64,000 nt of DNA, taken from NCBI RefSeq assembly GCF_002269345.1, contig NZ_CP022889.1, positions 1,736,001 through 1,800,000 on the forward strand, read 5' to 3'. Every line of letters begins with the position of its first letter. Position 1 is the first letter of the stretch. Of the stretch, positions 3,209 through 17,619 are shown in pieces. Both the position numbers and the translations under genes were made by a program. Under the pieces are notes generated by a model. The model had not been told where the DNA came from, did no database searches, and was given only the letters and a program-made list of their open reading frames with translations. This DNA is from Tsuneonella mangrovi. Lineage in GTDB: Bacteria; Pseudomonadota; Alphaproteobacteria; Sphingomonadales; Sphingomonadaceae.

Positions 3209-4189
3209 TCAGATATCGCCGCCCGTAAGCCTCTGACAAACAAGGTCGAGTTGGTCGAGTGTACGATATCGGATAGTCACTGTTCCTGCCCGCGGATCGG
3301 CGTCGGTCTTGATCCGAACCGACAGGCCGAGAAACTCCTCCAAATGACGCTGGACTGCAGCGATGTCGGCATCGTTAGTGCCAGGACGAGCCGCGCGGGC
3401 CTTGCGGCGTTCTCCCTCGCCAGCCGCCCCCGCGGCCCCCTTGCGCACAAGACGCTCGACCTCGCGAACGGACAGCTTGCCGTTAACCGCCTGCCGCGCA
3501 AGCGGGACGGCGTTTTCGTTGCCGATCAGCGCACGCGCATGGCCCATCGAAAGCTGTTCATCTTCAACAAGATCAAGCACTTCATCGGGCAGGAGCAGCA
3601 ACCGTTGGAGATTCGCGACGTGGCTGCGCGATTTATCGACCAACTTGGCTATTTCGGCCTGGGTCATGCCTTCGAGATCGGCCAGCCGCTGGTAAGCCCT
3701 GCCCTCCTCTACCGGATTGAGATCCTCGCGCTGGACATTCTCGATCAGCGCCAGCGCCATTACTTCGCGCTCATCGAGATCGCGCACCAACGCGGGAATC
3801 TCGTGCAGTCTGGCTTTCTGCGCCGCACGCCAGCGGCGTTCACCCGCGACCAACTGGAAGCGCCCGCCGGCAAGCGGACGGACTATTACCGGCTGGATTA
3901 CCCCGCGCTGGGCGATCGACTGGGCGAGCTGCTCAAGTGCTTCCTCGTCGAAGCGTTTACGGGGCTGGTTGGGCAGCGGTTCGATCGCCGACACGGGCAG
4001 GCTGGAAAGCCCCGAACCCGCTGTTTTTACGAGCGTTCCACCCTCGTCGGGTGTGCCGCCGGCGGCCAGTGGCTCCTCCCTCCGGGTTTCGCCGAGCAGG
4101 GCGCCCAGCCCCTTGCCGAGTTTCTTCTTCGTGTCACCCTTGGGGCGTTCCGGGATCGAGAAACGAATGGGGTCGGTCGGATCGCTCAT
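3209..4189 (-). CDS. parB: Chromosome partitioning protein ParB (parS-binding CTPase)
   Basis: DNA-segregation clamp protein of 326 residues that loads at parS, uses CTP to slide and spread, and stimulates ParA. Visible features in order are the N-terminal ParA-stimulating motif GKGLGALLGE (about residues 25-34), the ParB/Spo0J nucleotide-binding core with GERRWRAA (about 117-123), the arginine-rich ENVQREDLNP box, an HTH (MTQAEIAKLVDKSRSHVAN, about 175-193), and a C-terminal dimerisation domain. The start is ATG 4189, which overlaps the parA stop as ATGA (4186-4189). Longer upstream translation is possible in frame but runs through parA. parS-like sites lie 0.8-3.3 kb upstream. Confidence 0.97.
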   Translation of the reverse strand: MSDPTDPIRFSIPERPKGDTKKKLGKGLGALLGETRREEPLAAGGTPDEGGTLVKTAGSGLSSLPVSAIEPLPNQPRKRFDEEALEQLAQSIAQRGVIQPVIVRPLAGGRFQLVAGERRWRAAQKARLHEIPALVRDLDEREVMALALIENVQREDLNPVEEGRAYQRLADLEGMTQAEIAKLVDKSRSHVANLQRLLLLPDEVLDLVEDEQLSMGHARALIGNENAVPLARQAVNGKLSVREVERLVRKGAAGAAGEGERRKARAARPGTNDADIAAVQRHLEEFLGLSVRIKTDADPRAGTVTIRYRTLDQLDLVCQRLTGGDI

Positions 4190-4962
4190 GCGGCTTTCCT
4201 TTCGGCAGGGATGCGCCCGATCAGTTCGCGCGCAAGGGCGATATAGGCGCGGCTCCCGGGGCAATTGTGATCGTAGACAAGCGCCGGAAGTCCGTGGCTC
4301 GGCGCTTCGGACAAGCGGACGTTGCGAGGGATTACCGATTCGAACACCAGCGGCCCGAGGCAATCGCGCACGTCATCGGCCACCTGGTCGGTCAAGCGGT
4401 TGCGCCGGTCGAACATCGTCAGGACGATGCCGATGATTCCGAGATCGGGATTGAACCGGTTCTGGACCCGCTCGACCGTCTGCAAGAGCTGGCTCAGACC
4501 CTCGAGAGCGAAGAATTCGCACTGGAGAGGCACCAACAGAGTATCGGCTGCACCGAGTGCATTGAGCGTCAAGAGCCCCAGCGATGGCGGGCAGTCGATA
4601 AAGGCAATATCGTGGCCGTTGTGGCCAGCGAGGGCGGTCGACAACCGGGCAGTGCGATCCTCCACGGCGACCAGTTCGACCTCGGCTCCGCTCAGGTCCT
4701 GCGTCGCCGGGACGATGTCGAGCCCCGGGATGTTGGTCGGCTGGATGCACTCGGCCAGCGGTTGCCCCTCGACGACGAGGTCGTAGCTCGAATTGTCTCG
4801 ATGCTCTCCGTCGACGCCCATCCCGGTGGAGGCATTTCCTTGCGGATCGAGGTCGATTAGCAAGGTTTTCCAGCCGGTTGCCGCCATCGCAGTAGCGATG
4901 TTGATCGCTGTCGTGGTCTTGCCCACCCCGCCCTTCTGGTTGGCTATGGCGATGGTGATCAT
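4186..4962 (-). CDS. parA: Chromosome partitioning ATPase ParA (Soj family)
   Basis: Deviant-Walker ATPase of 258 residues that drives ParB-parS complexes toward the new pole. It begins [18 protein letters not shown], giving the deviant Walker A lysines K10 and K15. LLIDLDPQGN forms the Walker A-prime region and AFIDCPPSLG the Walker B region. No N-terminal HTH extension is present, so this is the small chromosomal type. The start overlaps the rsmG stop as ATGA (4959-4962) and the stop overlaps the parB start by four bases, so rsmG-parA-parB is probably translated as one coupled unit, the conserved alphaproteobacterial order. Confidence 0.97.
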   Translation of the reverse strand: MITIAIANQKGGVGKTTTAINIATAMAATGWKTLLIDLDPQGNASTGMGVDGEHRDNSSYDLVVEGQPLAECIQPTNIPGLDIVPATQDLSGAEVELVAVEDRTARLSTALAGHNGHDIAFIDCPPSLGLLTLNALGAADTLLVPLQCEFFALEGLSQLLQTVERVQNRFNPDLGIIGIVLTMFDRRNRLTDQVADDVRDCLGPLVFESVIPRNVRLSEAPSHGLPALVYDHNCPGSRAYIALARELIGRIPAERKAA

Positions 4963-5594
4963 TGCGGCAACGCCTCCTTGTTTCGACCCACGATAATTCC
5001 CGATTCCGGGTCGGTAAGCGAGGGTTCCACGTGGAACATCCGCCTCATCCCCCGCGGCAGGCCGGCTACTTCCTGCTCCGCCGAGCGCCCCTTGGGCAAC
5101 AGCCACACGGTGTCGCTTGTGGAAAAGCGGCGGGATAAGCTGAGCAAACGCGGCATCGGAGCAAATGCGCGCGCCGATATGACACTCGCGGAGAATGTAT
5201 CGAGGAGTTCGAGGCGTTTTCCCTCGATTCTACATCGCTCAAGTCCGAGCTTCACTACCATGCGAGTGAGCCACTCGATTCGCCTCTTGCGCGATTCGAC
5301 CAACACCACGGGCCACTCCGGGCGCAAAATCGCGATCACGAGACCAGGAAACCCGGCTCCTGAACCCAGGTCGAGCCAAGGAGCATCCAGCGTTTCACGT
5401 GAAACATGATGGAGCAACTGTGCGCTATCGGCCAGATGCCGCTGCCACACCGAGTCGAGCGAGCGAGCGGCCACCAGGTTCTGGTGTGTATTTTCAACAC
5501 ACAGGCTGGCAACCAATTCCTCAAGCCGCTCGATCGCTCGGTTCGAGCCGAGTTCCTCTACAAATGTGCGAGCTTCGCCTTCCGAAGCGATCAC
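4959..5594 (-). CDS. rsmG: 16S rRNA (guanine-N7)-methyltransferase RsmG (GidB)
   Basis: SAM-dependent enzyme of 211 residues that methylates N7 of a guanine in the 530 loop of 16S rRNA. The SAM-binding motif [11 protein letters not shown] sits at about residues 74-84, followed by ILVE-like [13 protein letters not shown] and [14 protein letters not shown], which are conserved in RsmG. The start is GTG 5594, overlapping the mnmG stop as GTGA. A longer upstream ORF in this frame is only antisense-type low-complexity sequence within mnmG and was not used. Two parS-like palindromes (5023-5038 and 5391-5406) lie inside this gene, encoding the residues around FHVEP and HHVSRET. Confidence 0.95.
5023..5038. 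promoter_or_regulatory. parS-like site 1 (degenerate)
   Basis: The 16-mer GGTTCCACGTGGAACA is centred on CACGTG inside rsmG. It differs from the canonical bacterial parS TGTTTCACGTGAAACA at three positions, two of which form a symmetric C/G substitution that keeps the inner palindrome GTTCCACGTGGAAC perfect. It lies about 60 bases upstream of the parA start. Assignment as a ParB site is inference from sequence and from its position beside parAB. Confidence 0.7.
5391..5406. promoter_or_regulatory. parS site 2 (near-canonical)
   Basis: CGTTTCACGTGAAACA matches the canonical parS at 15 of 16 positions; only the first base differs. It lies within the rsmG coding sequence. This is the best match of the four parS-like palindromes in the window. 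Confidence 0.88.
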
Positions 5595-7522: not shown

Positions 7523-7538
7523 TGTTTCACGTGGAACA
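7523..7538. promoter_or_regulatory. parS site 4 (near-canonical, intergenic)
   Basis: TGTTTCACGTGGAACA differs from canonical parS at one position. It lies in the roughly 100-base gap between mnmE and mnmG, three bases past the mnmE stop. It is the only one of the four sites outside a coding sequence, so it is under the least protein-level constraint. Confidence 0.87.
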
Positions 7539-12929: not shown

Positions 12930-14195
12930 TTACTGGTTCATCGTCGCGAAGAAGTCCTCGTTGGTCTTCGAATCCTTCATCTTGTCGAGCAGGAATTCCA
13001 TCGCGTCGACGGTACCCATCTGCATCAGGATCCGGCGCAGGACCCACATCTTCGAGAGCTTGTCCTTCTCGACCAGCAGTTCTTCCTTGCGGGTGCCGGA
13101 CTTGCCGACATCGAGCGCGGGGAAGATGCGCTTGTCGGCGACCTTGCGGTCGAGCACGATTTCGCTGTTGCCGGTCCCCTTGAACTCTTCGAAGATGACT
13201 TCGTCCATCCGGCTGCCGGTATCGATCAGCGCGGTCGCGATGATCGACAACGAACCACCTTCCTCGATGTTGCGCGCCGCGCCGAAGAACCGCTTCGGGC
13301 GCTGTAACGCGTTGGCATCGACACCGCCCGTCAGCACCTTGCCCGAACTCGGCACGACGGTGTTGTAGGCACGGCCAAGACGCGTAATCGAGTCGAGCAG
13401 GATAACTACGTCGCGCTTGTGCTCGACGAGCCGCTTGGCCTTCTCGATGACCATCTCGGCGACCTGGACGTGGCGCGTCGCGGGCTCGTCGAAGGTCGAG
13501 GAGATCACTTCGCCCTTCACGCTGCGCTGCATGTCGGTGACTTCCTCGGGCCGCTCGTCGACCAGCAGCACCAGCAGGAACACTTCGGGGTGGTTATCGG
13601 TGATTGCCTTGGCGATGTTCTGCAGCAGCACGGTCTTACCGGTACGCGGCGGCGCGACGATCAGCGCGCGCTGGCCCTTGCCCTGCGGGCTGATGATATC
13701 GATCACTCGCGCGCTCTTGTCCTTCACGGTCGGGTCAAGCGTGTCGAGCGACAGCTTCTCGTCCGGGTAGAGCGGCGTGAGGTTGTCGAAGTTGGTCCGG
13801 TGGCGGACCGCTTCGGGATCGTCGTAGTTGACCGAAGTCAGGCTGGTCAGTGCGAAGTAGCGCTCGCCCTCCTTTGGCGCGCGAATCTCGCCTTCAACGG
13901 TATCGCCGGTGCGCAGGCCCCATTTGCGGACTTGGTTGGGCGAGACGTAGATATCGTCCGGGCCGGCAAGGTAATTCGCTTCCGGGCTGCGGAGGAAACC
14001 GAAGCCGTCACTCAGCACTTCGATCGTGCCGATGCCCATGATCTTCTCGTCGTATTCCTCGTCTTCGGCGAGTTCGCGCAGGATCGAGAACAGCAGGTCC
14101 TGCCGCCGCATGGTGCTGGCGCCTTCGACGCCGAGTTCCTCGGCCATGCTGACAAGCTCGGCCGGTGCTTTCTTCTTGAGTTCTTTAAGGTGCAT
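12930..14195 (-). CDS. rho: Transcription termination factor Rho
   Basis: Hexameric RNA-dependent ATPase of 421 residues that terminates transcription. It begins [20 protein letters not shown] (Rho N domain). The cold-shock-like RNA-binding fold follows ([31 protein letters not shown]). Walker A is APPRTGKT (about residues 181-188), with [12 protein letters not shown], the Q/R-loop region ([15 protein letters not shown]) and the C-terminal [18 protein letters not shown]. Length and motifs are standard. rho beside hemE and near oriC is conserved in several alphaproteobacteria. Confidence 0.98.
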
Positions 14196-14841: not shown

Positions 14842-15867
14842 TCACCCCCTCCAGCCGCGAATCGTGGCTTTCAAGCGCTCGACGTGTTCGATCGGGGTCC
14901 TGCGGTCGATCCCATGTCCCAGGTTGAAGACGTGCGGACGTTCTGCGAATGCACGCAGGATTGCTTCTGCCCGGGCAACCAACGCATCGCCGCCGGCCAA
15001 GAGCAGCAACGGATCGAGGTTGCCCTGAACCGGCATTCCTTGCGGCAGTTCACGCGCGGCCCATACCGGGTCGATTGTCTCGTCAACTCCCACAGCATCG
15101 ACACCGGTTTCGCTCGCATAGGCAGGCAGCTTCTCGCCCGCCCCTTTTGGAAAGCCGATCACCGGAACGCCAGGGCAACGCTCGTGGATCGCAACAGCAA
15201 TCGCGGTGTTGGGAGCGATGACCCAACGCTCGAACTCGTCGGGAGCAAGACTGCCCGACCACGAATCGAACAGTTGCACCGCTTCGGCACCCGCCTCGAT
15301 CTGTCCGACCAAGTATTCGACCGTCACTTGCGTAATGGTATCGATGATCGCCTGGAAACGCGCCGGATCGCGATATGCCAGCGCGCGCGTCTCGTGCTGG
15401 TCGCGGCTGCCTTCGCCGTTCACCATGTAGGTCGCAACGGTCCATGGGCTGCCAGCAAAGCCCAGCAACGTCGTTTCAGGCCCGAGAGCTGCCTTCACCT
15501 TGCCCACCGTCCTATAGATCGGCGCAAGACGCTCAGGCACCGCGACAAGCGACGACAGCGGATGTTCGGCCAGCCGCGGAGTCAGTTGCGGGCCCTCGCC
15601 GGCGAGAAATGCGAGCTGTTGCCCCATCGCGTAAGGAACGATCAGGATGTCAGAAAACAGGATCGCCCCGTCGAAACCGAACCGGCGGATCGGCTGGATC
15701 GTGACTTCCGCCGCTGCGTCGGTATCGTAGACCAATTCGAGGAACCCGCCCTTGTCGGCCCTCAATTCGCGATACTCGGGCAAGTAACGCCCCGCTTGGC
15801 GCATAAGCCACATGGGGACAGCGTCGGCACGCTGGCCGCGCAGGGTTTCAAGCAGGAGACCGGGCAT
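14842..15867 (-). CDS. hemE: Uroporphyrinogen decarboxylase HemE
   Basis: Enzyme of 341 residues converting uroporphyrinogen III to coproporphyrinogen III. Signatures seen are the N-terminal WLMRQAGRYLPEYRELR (substrate-binding arginines), ILFSDILIVPYAMGQ with the catalytic aspartate, GFAGSPWTVATYMV, and the C-terminal NLGHGIDRRTPIEHV. ATG 15867 is used because the upstream in-frame TTG (15888) has no ribosome-binding site and lies in the AT-rich inverted repeat region. In Caulobacter and Rickettsia the chromosomal origin lies next to hemE, and the adjacent gap here has origin-like signals. Confidence 0.97.
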   Translation of the reverse strand: MPGLLLETLRGQRADAVPMWLMRQAGRYLPEYRELRADKGGFLELVYDTDAAAEVTIQPIRRFGFDGAILFSDILIVPYAMGQQLAFLAGEGPQLTPRLAEHPLSSLVAVPERLAPIYRTVGKVKAALGPETTLLGFAGSPWTVATYMVNGEGSRDQHETRALAYRDPARFQAIIDTITQVTVEYLVGQIEAGAEAVQLFDSWSGSLAPDEFERWVIAPNTAIAVAIHERCPGVPVIGFPKGAGEKLPAYASETGVDAVGVDETIDPVWAARELPQGMPVQGNLDPLLLLAGGDALVARAEAILRAFAERPHVFNLGHGIDRRTPIEHVERLKATIRGWRG

Positions 15868-15893
15868 CGATTCTCGGGTCCTATCCAATACAA

Positions 15894-15906
15894 TTAAGAT
15901 TCTTAA
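15894..15906. repeat. AT-rich inverted repeat TTAAGA-T-TCTTAA in candidate oriC
   Basis: Thirteen bases in which two TTAA blocks flank GATTC, a potential CcrM methylation site. The spacing between TTAA blocks is five bases, not the seven of a CtrA site, so CtrA binding is not implied. It lies in the most AT-rich part of the hemE-ppsR gap and could belong to the unwinding element. Confidence 0.55.
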
Positions 15907-16161
15907 GTAAGATGATGGAGTCTGTTGGCCCTGTGGATTTCGGGGACAATCGCGCCCTGCCCGAATTCTCCCGCGATGAACAGGGTGAAGCGGTTCGCGA
16001 ATCGCTGGTTTACCGCGTCAATGAATCGTTTTCCCCACTGTCCCCAGCCTGTCGAAAAGCCAACCAGAGTGTCCATAAAGTGCTGGGTGGAGGACTCGGA
16101 CTGGGTATGGAATCGCGGGCCTTGCTTGTCCGCAGTCCTGTCCCGTGGTTTATGCTGGGGG

Positions 16162-16170
16162 TTGTCCACA
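16162..16170 (+). promoter_or_regulatory. DnaA box-like 9-mer (best match)
   Basis: TTGTCCACA differs from the consensus TTATCCACA at one position. It is the strongest DnaA-box candidate in the hemE-ppsR gap and sits 20 bases before the ppsR start codon. Confidence 0.65.
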
Positions 16171-16189
16171 CGCCGCCGAGCCGATCCCG

Positions 16190-17035
16190 ATGCCGCGACT
16201 CCACCTGCACTTGCTATCAGATTCCACCGGCGAAACGCTCGAAATGATCGCCAAGGCAGCCCTCGCGCAATTCGAGGACACCGATATCCAACGCCATTTC
16301 TGGCCTATGGTCCGCAGCCGCCAGCATCTCGACCGGATCGTGCCCGATCTCGCGGCCAACCCCGGGTTGGTGCTGTTCACGTTGGTCAATGTCGATACCC
16401 GCGCAAGGCTGGAGGAACATTGTCGGACGCTCGGGCTTCCCGCGGTCCCGGTGCTTGATGCAGTGACCGAAGCGCTTGAGGCGCAGCTCGGCCAGGAAGC
16501 GCATGGGCGGCCCGGGCGCCAGCACTCGATGGACGAGGCGTACTTCAAGCGTGTCGAAGCGATCCATTACACCATCGCGCACGACGACGGGATCGCGTGG
16601 GAGGATTGGGAACAGGCCGACATCATCCTTGCCGGGGTGTCGCGCAGTTCGAAAACCCCGACCAGCATCTATCTCGCCAACCGCGGCTACAAGGTCGCCA
16701 ATATCCCGCTGGTGGTCGAAAGCCCGCCGCCCGATGCGCTGTTCCGGTTGCGCCATCCGATGGTCGTGGGCCTGACGACCGCACCCGAGCGACTGGTGCA
16801 GGTGCGCCGCAACCGCTTGCTTACCATCGCGGAAGGGCGCGAGAGCGATTACGTCGATGCCGAGCGAGTAAATGAAGAAGTGAAGTTCGCGCGGCGGATG
16901 TTCGCCGACAATGCCTGGCCCGTAATCGACGTGACACGCCGCTCAATCGAGGAAACCGCCGCAGCGGTGATCAAGCTCTACAACGAACGCGGCGCAAGAG
17001 CGAGCGAACCCGAAGACGGGCCCAAGCCGATATGA
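16190..17035 (+). CDS. ppsR: Pyruvate phosphate dikinase regulatory protein (DUF299 kinase/pyrophosphorylase)
   Basis: Bifunctional serine/threonine kinase and phosphorylase of 281 residues that controls pyruvate phosphate dikinase or PEP synthetase by ADP-dependent phosphorylation. Family motifs are HLLSDSTGETLEMIAKAAL at the N-terminus, the P-loop GVSRSSKTPTS, and PMVVGLTTAPERL. ATG 16190 is chosen; the open frame extends 15 codons upstream into the origin region without family similarity. This is the RP001-type gene that flanks oriC in Caulobacter and Rickettsia. It overlaps maf by four bases (ATGA). Confidence 0.95.
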   Translation: MPRLHLHLLSDSTGETLEMIAKAALAQFEDTDIQRHFWPMVRSRQHLDRIVPDLAANPGLVLFTLVNVDTRARLEEHCRTLGLPAVPVLDAVTEALEAQLGQEAHGRPGRQHSMDEAYFKRVEAIHYTIAHDDGIAWEDWEQADIILAGVSRSSKTPTSIYLANRGYKVANIPLVVESPPPDALFRLRHPMVVGLTTAPERLVQVRRNRLLTIAEGRESDYVDAERVNEEVKFARRMFADNAWPVIDVTRRSIEETAAAVIKLYNERGARASEPEDGPKPI

Positions 17036-17619
17036 CCCTGGTGCTTGCATCGAAGAGCGCCAGCCGCTGCGCGATGCTCGACGCTGCGGGCGTGGAATTC
17101 GATTCGATTCCCGCCGATGTCGACGAGCGGGCAATCGAAGATTCGCTTGAAACCTTGGATCCGGCGGAGATTGCCATTGCTTTGGCGCAGGCCAAGGCGC
17201 TGGTGGTCAGCCGCGCATGGCCTGACCGGTTAGTCCTGGGGAGCGATTCGCTGGTGAGCATCGACGGCGAGCGGTTCGACAAGCCCGCCAGCAGAATGGA
17301 TGCTGCGCGGCACTTGCGGCGCTTTTCGGGCCAGACGATGGAACTCCACAGCGGTGCAGCGTTGTCGCGCGGCGGGAATGTCCTGTGGTCGGCTGGCGAC
17401 GTTGCGCGGCTCAAGGTGCGTGATCTGTCGAACGAATTTATCGAAGCATACCTCGAGGCAGAATGGCCGGCGATTGCCGGATGCGTCGGCTGCTTCCGGA
17501 TCGAGGCGCGTGGTGCGCAATTGTTCGAAACGATCGAAGGTGACCAGTTCACGGTGCTGGGCATGCCGTTGCTGGCAGTTCTCGGCGCGCTGCGCGTGCA
17601 AGGGGAGCTTCTGGCATGA
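17032..17619 (+). CDS. maf: Maf-family nucleoside triphosphate pyrophosphatase
   Basis: House-cleaning nucleotide pyrophosphatase of 195 residues expected to hydrolyse non-canonical or specific NTPs. It starts MTLVLASKSASRCAMLDAAG, the Maf signature with Ser and Arg residues, followed by VDERAIE, the catalytic-aspartate region VLGSDSLVSIDG, the KPAS-type motif (FDKPASRMDA), and GCFRIEARGAQLFETIEGD. It overlaps ppsR and aroE by four bases each. ppsR-maf-aroE-coaE-dnaQ is a conserved origin-proximal block in alphaproteobacteria. Confidence 0.93.
   Translation: MTLVLASKSASRCAMLDAAGVEFDSIPADVDERAIEDSLETLDPAEIAIALAQAKALVVSRAWPDRLVLGSDSLVSIDGERFDKPASRMDAARHLRRFSGQTMELHSGAALSRGGNVLWSAGDVARLKVRDLSNEFIEAYLEAEWPAIAGCVGCFRIEARGAQLFETIEGDQFTVLGMPLLAVLGALRVQGELLA

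What the first reader, a model, noticed from the sequence alone, without database searches (positions are those of the whole stretch)
15868..16189. Probable chromosomal replication origin in the hemE-ppsR gap
Seen: a 322-base non-coding gap between divergent genes with one near-consensus DnaA-box-like 9-mer, three weaker ones, an AT-rich inverted repeat and seven GANTC sites. Established: in Caulobacter and Rickettsia the origin lies beside hemE and next to the RP001-type gene (ppsR here). Inferred: this is oriC, supported by gene orientation that largely diverges from it. If right, window coordinates can be set relative to the replication start.
Basis: partly seen in the sequence, partly recalled or inferred. 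Interest (0 to 1): 0.82.

Follow-up and report, generated by a model that had tools for sequence, protein, structure and literature searches.

The report
Chromosome replication start in a sphingomonad
The gap between two genes in this bacterial chromosome is very probably where copying of the chromosome begins, at the same place already predicted for related bacteria, so it is a sound but ordinary finding.

Summary
The 322-b gap 15868-16189 lies between hemE (-) and ppsR (+). It holds six 9-mers within two mismatches of TTATCCACA; of 29,044 sampled windows only two, both lying on the gap, reach six. It also holds seven GANTC sites and an AT-rich stretch. In a 44% genome sample the cumulative GC-skew minimum falls at window 16363 (bootstrap C1:1742.5-1770 kb). 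The genome's only two parS-like sites and parB lie 8-13 kb away. The own genome and 52 of 52 relatives checked first keep the arrangement. Two natural experiments separate the box array from the genes: it stays beside hemE where ppsR is missing, and beside ppsR where hemE has moved. Sphingomonad origins at hemE are already in print (PMC4741004, PMC4059872), so this is a new member of a known kind. CtrA and IHF consensus sites are absent, unlike Caulobacter. The less expected part is a strong GANTC (CcrM-site) enrichment, with at least one site in 80 of 80 gaps. Its role is untested, and Caulobacter data argue against a role in initiation.

The parts
15868..16189 (.). Predicted chromosomal origin (oriC): intergenic gap between hemE and ppsR
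   Evidence: arrangement kept in 53 of 53 first loci, own genome included
15882..15917 (.). AT-rich stretch, proposed unwinding element; contains the 13-b palindrome TTAAGATTCTTAA at 15894-15906
   Evidence: 24 of 31 bases A/T; the centre of the most AT-rich 31-mer lies within 80 b of the hemE edge in 77 of 80 gaps; palindrome position. Role inferred
15932..15940 (-). DnaA-like box (AAATCCACA on the minus strand, 2 mismatches), inside the conserved block GTTGGCCCTGTGGA...CGGGGA
   Evidence: a number of relatives carry 0-1 mismatch boxes at about the same offset
15999..16003 (.). GANTC site (CcrM target), the best conserved of the seven
   Evidence: 51 of 51 rows in the first alignment; 54 of 78 strict and 57 of 78 within 6 columns in the larger one, so exact placement depends on the alignment
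16029..16037 (+). DnaA-like box TTTTCCCCA (2 mismatches), first of a central cluster
   Evidence: TTATCCACA occurs near this offset in several relatives
16050..16058 (-). DnaA-like box TTTTCGACA (2 mismatches)
16070..16078 (-). DnaA-like box TTATGGACA (2 mismatches); several relatives read TGTCCACAA on the plus strand here
16126..16134 (+). DnaA-like box TTGTCCGCA (2 mismatches)
16141..16155 (+). Conserved non-DnaA block TCCCGTGGTTTATGC; with CTTGTCC at 16125-16131 it may be the ppsR promoter
   Evidence: Columns 16141 and 16151-16153 invariant in 51 rows; positions; CTTG-N15..20-TTTAT in 45 of 79 gaps. The promoter scan found nothing at its threshold, so the promoter reading is inference
16162..16170 (+). 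Best DnaA-like box TTGTCCACA (1 mismatch), about 30 b before ppsR
14842..15867 (-). hemE (uroporphyrinogen decarboxylase), left flank
   Evidence: PF01208, E 4.4e-109
16190..17035 (+). ppsR (COG1806/DUF299 kinase-pyrophosphorylase), right flank
   Evidence: PF03618, E 2.6e-94
3209..4363 (-). parB, with parA at 4186-5106 (-)
   Evidence: ParB_N, HTH_ParB and ParB_C; AAA_31 for parA. Only ParB_N match over the cut-off in the genome; a second, weaker match is below it
5391..5406 (.). parS-like site, 1 mismatch
   Evidence: One of only two places in the genome at up to 2 mismatches; control pattern 0
7523..7538 (.). parS-like site, 1 mismatch

Best explanation
The gap is the chromosomal origin, oriC. 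DnaA, whose gene lies 1.1 Mb away at C1:637 kb, would bind the array of mostly weak boxes and build an oligomer outward from the better boxes (16162-16170 and the conserved one at 15932-15940). It would then melt the AT-rich stretch next to hemE (about 15882-15917), so that two forks leave in opposite directions. The duplicated origin would be segregated by ParB at the two parS-like sites 8-11 kb to the left. Shown here: location of the strand-asymmetry switch, box clustering, conservation, linkage to parB/parS, and independence from either neighbour gene. Inferred: DnaA binding, order of assembly, and the unwinding site.
For: Cumulative GC-skew minimum at window 16363 in 140 kb of contiguous DNA and in the 44% sample; two-breakpoint fit at 1752.5 kb, bootstrap 1742.5-1770 kb. 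Six DnaA-like 9-mers, a count reached among 29,044 windows only by the two on the gap. Only two parS-like sites in the genome, and the only ParB_N match over cut-off, all within 13 kb. One dif-like site at 209,352, where sampled GGGNAGGG flips strand: 19 plus and 0 minus before it, 0 plus and 33 minus from there to 500 kb. hemE-gap-ppsR kept in 53 of 53 first loci and 26 of 27 further family genomes; hemE found beside ppsR in 49 of 60 class-level stretches. The gap is better conserved than two nearby intergenic regions of the same genomes: 0.537 v 0.384 and 0.525 v 0.241 mean pairwise identity. Where PpsR is missing (G020), a box array with six exact boxes stays beside hemE. Where hemE has moved (G024), an array stays beside ppsR, and the 4-kb locus of the moved hemE has no box within 1 mismatch.
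Against: No exact DnaA box and none by TTATNCACA; the boxes are weak. Skew is only about 1-4% and 56% of the genome was not read; several 20-kb samples have the wrong sign or none. TA skew has its minimum 49 kb away and a crude third-position GC skew 3 kb away. GGGNAGGG shows no sharp flip at the gap (7 plus, 10 minus just before; 9 plus, 7 minus just after). The arms to dif are unequal, 1.16 and 1.54 Mb, and the skew maximum (about 312 kb) is 0.1 Mb from dif. Conservation could partly reflect two promoters. No physical data.
Confidence: 0.95

Rival explanations
1. The gap is only a divergent promoter and leader region for hemE and ppsR, DnaA regulates one of these genes there, and the true origin lies elsewhere near parB or in another gap of the 1.74-1.77 Mb zone.
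For: Two divergent genes need promoters here. A conserved CTTGTCC-N17-TTTATG arrangement precedes ppsR. The skew fit alone does not resolve better than about 28 kb.
Against: An array is found where either gene is gone. Conserved blocks fill the whole gap, up to 300 b from hemE. Outside the gap the best 322-b window in the 64 kb holds 4 boxes (start 2516). No Rfam match, and no promoter over threshold.
Confidence: 0.04
2. The gap encodes a small protein or RNA, and its conservation reflects that.
For: ORFs of 88, 111 and 177 aa cross the gap, and long stop-free stretches recur in relatives.
Against: Gap lengths vary by amounts that are not multiples of three. Three ORFs gave one Pfam hit, below its cut-off (DUF6233, E 0.027), and there is no Rfam match at E up to 1. 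Open frames are expected at this G+C. A codon-substitution test was not run.
Confidence: 0.01

Closest known systems
Predicted oriC of Sphingopyxis, Novosphingobium and other Sphingomonadaceae at hemE (PMC4741004, PMC4059872)
   Same: Position beside hemE and several DnaA boxes in both papers; a proposed unwinding element in PMC4741004 (passages read)
   Different: Different genus. Added here: skew switch, parS and dif map, two gene-loss cases, GANTC enrichment. Whether the boxes match theirs could not be checked, because their alignment is in a supplement that I could not open
Caulobacter crescentus Cori
   Same: Between hemE and COG1806; AT-rich region; moderate and very weak DnaA sites (passages read); GANTC motifs in the origin (section 15 of PMC3973325 read)
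   Different: Cori has five CtrA sites and one IHF site; neither consensus occurs in this gap, and strict CtrA occurs in 1 of 80 gaps of this family set
Rickettsia prowazekii and Wolbachia origins
   Same: hemE as a boundary gene and, as predicted in silico, DnaA boxes and high A+T in Wolbachia (PMC1914354, passages read)
   Different: In Wolbachia the other boundary gene is a CBS-domain protein, and CtrA and IHF sites are reported

Membership tests
Alphaproteobacterial hemE-linked, DnaA-type chromosomal origin | Lies between hemE and the COG1806 gene (ppsR) | tested here: met
   PF01208 and PF03618 on the two sides
Alphaproteobacterial hemE-linked, DnaA-type chromosomal origin | Cluster of DnaA boxes beyond chance | tested here: met
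   Six at up to 2 mismatches, the top count of 29,044 windows. Under the strict TTATNCACA rule there are none
Alphaproteobacterial hemE-linked, DnaA-type chromosomal origin | Higher A+T than the genome, with an AT-rich element | tested here: met
   G+C 0.562, in the lowest 5.2% of sampled windows; AT-rich 31-mer in the top 0.03%
Alphaproteobacterial hemE-linked, DnaA-type chromosomal origin | Minimum of cumulative GC skew | tested here: met
   Window 16363, 174 b past the gap; 44% of the genome sampled
Alphaproteobacterial hemE-linked, DnaA-type chromosomal origin | Replication starts there / autonomous replication | not testable with these tools
   Needs reads or cells
Caulobacter-type Cori under direct CtrA control | CtrA sites TTAA-N7-TTAA | tested here: not met
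   None in the gap, strict or loose; strict in 1 of 80 and loose in 17 of 80 gaps
Caulobacter-type Cori under direct CtrA control | IHF site WATCAN5WTR | tested here: not met
   None in the gap; present in 10 of 80 gaps
GATC/SeqA-like methylation-controlled origin (by analogy only) | Methylase sites enriched in the origin and a cognate methylase in the genome | tested here: met
   GANTC 14.8 per kb over 80 gaps v 1.74 in the own-genome sample; CcrM-like protein with N6_N4_Mtase and RAMA domains. That it methylates GANTC is by family knowledge, not tested
GATC/SeqA-like methylation-controlled origin (by analogy only) | Methylation changes initiation | not testable with these tools

The most novel reading that the evidence does not exclude
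This would be a GANTC counterpart of the Dam/SeqA system.
Probability: 0.12. Interest if true: 0.75.

Novelty: new member of a known kind. Interest (0 to 1): 0.3.

Why it matters
It fixes the replication start of this chromosome, so that gene order, dosage and strand can be read relative to it. The two gene-loss relatives show that the box array behaves as a unit independent of both neighbour genes. The GANTC enrichment, about fourfold over nearby intergenic DNA, turns the question of whether CcrM methylation touches initiation outside Caulobacter into a simple site-removal test.

Tried and rejected
CtrA-site reading of the AT-rich palindrome: its spacing is five bases, not seven, and neither the strict nor the loose pattern matches. 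RNA element: no Rfam match at E up to 1. Small ORFs: one Pfam hit in three, below its cut-off. Sigma-70-like promoters or terminators: none at threshold. CcrM-presence test at class level: of 133 class genomes with a PpsR match (of 192 searched), I fetched 60, namely 22 chosen for a weak, missing or unlisted CcrM match and 38 others taken roughly by PpsR rank. GANTC per kb was 7.9 in the 34 gaps with hemE and a strong CcrM match, and 5.9 in the 15 with hemE and no strong match, against 1.5 and 2.1 in the hemE-side sequence. The difference between groups is small and the second group holds many draft genomes, so the test is inconclusive. Two of the 34 CcrM-group gaps have no GANTC, so the rule of at least one site does not extend to the whole class. 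Invariance of the 15999 GANTC: 51 of 51 in one alignment, which left out 2 of 53 gaps longer than 400 b, but only 54 of 78 in a larger one that left out 2 of 80 gaps longer than 430 b; I therefore claim enrichment, not a fixed site. Gene orientation adds little. Two of 59 family genomes lack a PpsR match: G020 was informative, while G021 (380 contigs) gave no hemE match either and was set aside.

Full report
What is there. The window is C1:1736001-1800000 of a 2,702,851-base single-contig genome. The closest named relatives found by PpsR are Tsuneonella flava and T. suprasediminis, 92% identity; that search may leave out very near records. The gap 15868-16189 separates hemE on the minus strand from ppsR on the plus strand. 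To the left lie hemJ-like (UPF0093), rho, mnmE, mnmG, rsmG, parA and parB genes. To the right lie maf, aroE, coaE, a dnaQ-like exonuclease gene, hpf and ptsN. The short names are mine, from the Pfam matches.

Is it more than chance? Six 9-mers within two mismatches of TTATCCACA fall in the gap. Of 29,044 windows of the same size over a 44% sample of the genome, two reach six, and both lie on the gap. None of 2000 shuffles reaches it. Seven GANTC sites are reached by 1 of 2000 shuffles. By a score that favours better matches the gap shares the top with windows upstream of the CcrM-like gene and at about 19 kb of the contig, each of which holds one exact box. By the strict consensus TTATNCACA the gap has no box at all, so the array is one of weak sites.

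Chromosome-scale evidence. GC skew in 20-kb samples is mostly negative from 0.35 to 1.75 Mb and mostly positive elsewhere, with a few samples near zero or of the other sign on each side. In 140 contiguous kb the cumulative GC minimum is at window 16363 and the keto minimum at 17038, but the TA minimum is at -33.5 kb and the third-position GC minimum by a crude ORF caller is at 13086. Filling unsampled stretches from their flanks, the global minimum is again 1752363; a two-breakpoint fit gives 312.5 and 1752.5 kb, with bootstrap ranges 267.5-386 and 1742.5-1770 kb. The bootstrap treats 5-kb bins as independent. The only two parS-like places in the genome lie at window 5391 and 7523, and the only ParB_N match over cut-off is at 3.7-4.0 kb. 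One dif-like site lies at 209,352. Sampled GGGNAGGG flips strand there, from 19 plus and 0 minus to 0 plus and 33 minus up to 500 kb; the whole-genome list, cut at its first 100 places, shows three plus sites between 209 and 500 kb. At the gap itself that motif shows no sharp flip: 7 plus and 10 minus before it, 9 plus and 7 minus after it. The arms from the gap to dif are 1.16 and 1.54 Mb. dnaA is far off at 637 kb.

Relatives. In 53 of 53 first loci (own genome, 23 named loci, 29), hemE and ppsR diverge around a gap of 293-574 b, mostly near 320. Boxes within one mismatch recur about 30, 141 and 262 b before ppsR; five of the 53 have none within one mismatch. Of 27 further family genomes, 26 keep both genes. 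Of 60 class-level stretches fetched out of 133 hits, 49 have hemE beside ppsR; of the other 11, at least three (L149, L151, L159) are cut short by a contig edge. The gap is more conserved than two nearby intergenic regions: 231 of 253 genome pairs against rho-hemJ and 226 of 231 against hpf-ptsN. A third, short region, coaE-dnaQ, has mean identity 0.359 in 19 loci and was not compared pair by pair. The centre of the most AT-rich 31-mer sits within 80 b of the hemE edge in 77 of 80 gaps.

Two natural experiments. G020 has no PpsR match, but upstream of its hemE lie six exact TTATCCACA boxes and 16 within two mismatches in 500 b. It may be a Zymomonas; that is a guess from size and composition. 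G024 has hemE on another contig; that 4-kb locus has no box within one mismatch and five scattered 2-mismatch ones. In G024 one exact and one 1-mismatch box remain before ppsR, now next to a frame that looks like hemJ by eye. So the array belongs to neither gene, as expected of an origin and not of a promoter. Skew was not computed in these two genomes.

How it would work. By established knowledge of bacterial initiation, DnaA would load on the array, melt the AT-rich stretch, and admit the helicase. Very weak boxes that need cooperation are described for Caulobacter Cori (PMC4468827, passages). Binding and melting are inferred here, not shown.

GANTC sites. All 80 gaps examined (53, 26 more and the G024 stretch) hold at least one. 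The density is 14.8 per kb, against 1.74 in the own-genome sample and 1.0-6.1 for six control patterns of the same composition in the same gaps; one control, AGNCT, is itself raised (6.1 v 1.7 per kb, in 74 of 80 gaps). In matched loci it is 11.85 per kb in 24 gaps against 3.09 in 45 control intergenic regions, with 3.8 and 3.6 expected from composition. The genome has a CcrM-like methylase with a RAMA domain. [quoted passage not shown] The same section recalls that CcrM overexpression gives extra chromosome copies. A role in initiation is therefore open here, and I rate it unlikely.

What is known. PMC4741004 states that oriC has been predicted near hemE for most Sphingomonadaceae in DoriC, and that boxes can be aligned among Sphingopyxis strains (passages). 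PMC4059872 predicts the same in Novosphingobium PP1Y (passages). The hemE/COG1806 rule and the CtrA and IHF features of Cori come from PMC1914354 (passages). My four searches for sphingomonad or hemE origins listed 3, 4, 2 and the first 10 of 541 papers. I saw no experimental mapping for this group in those listings or in the passages I read, but the library holds open-licence papers only, so this does not show that none exists.

Verdict. It is the origin with about 95% confidence, a new member of a known kind, with a side observation on CcrM sites that is worth one experiment.

Noticed in passing
L113:2280-2500 (C1 about 765,950-766,170), upstream of the CcrM-like gene: An exact DnaA box and up to six GANTC sites in 322 b just upstream of ccrM, the highest box score in the sampled genome; it may be a DnaA- and methylation-controlled promoter.
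   Followed up: partly
L128, gap before ppsR (343 b): 19 GANTC sites in one gap, the extreme among 80 gaps.
   Followed up: no
L116 upstream of hemE (G020): A relative without a PpsR match carries a far denser, canonical DnaA-box array, with six exact boxes.
   Followed up: partly
C1:209,352 and about 312 kb: The dif-like site and the GGGNAGGG switch lie about 0.1 Mb from the GC-skew maximum, and the arms are unequal, 1.16 and 1.54 Mb. A rearrangement near the terminus is one possible cause.
   Followed up: no
window 16125-16155: Conserved CTTGTCC...TCCCGTGGTTTATGC block before ppsR that is not a DnaA box; it may be the ppsR promoter or an unknown binding site.
   Followed up: partly
G021 (family genome, 380 contigs): No hemE and no ppsR match at all despite 96% stated completeness.
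   Followed up: no
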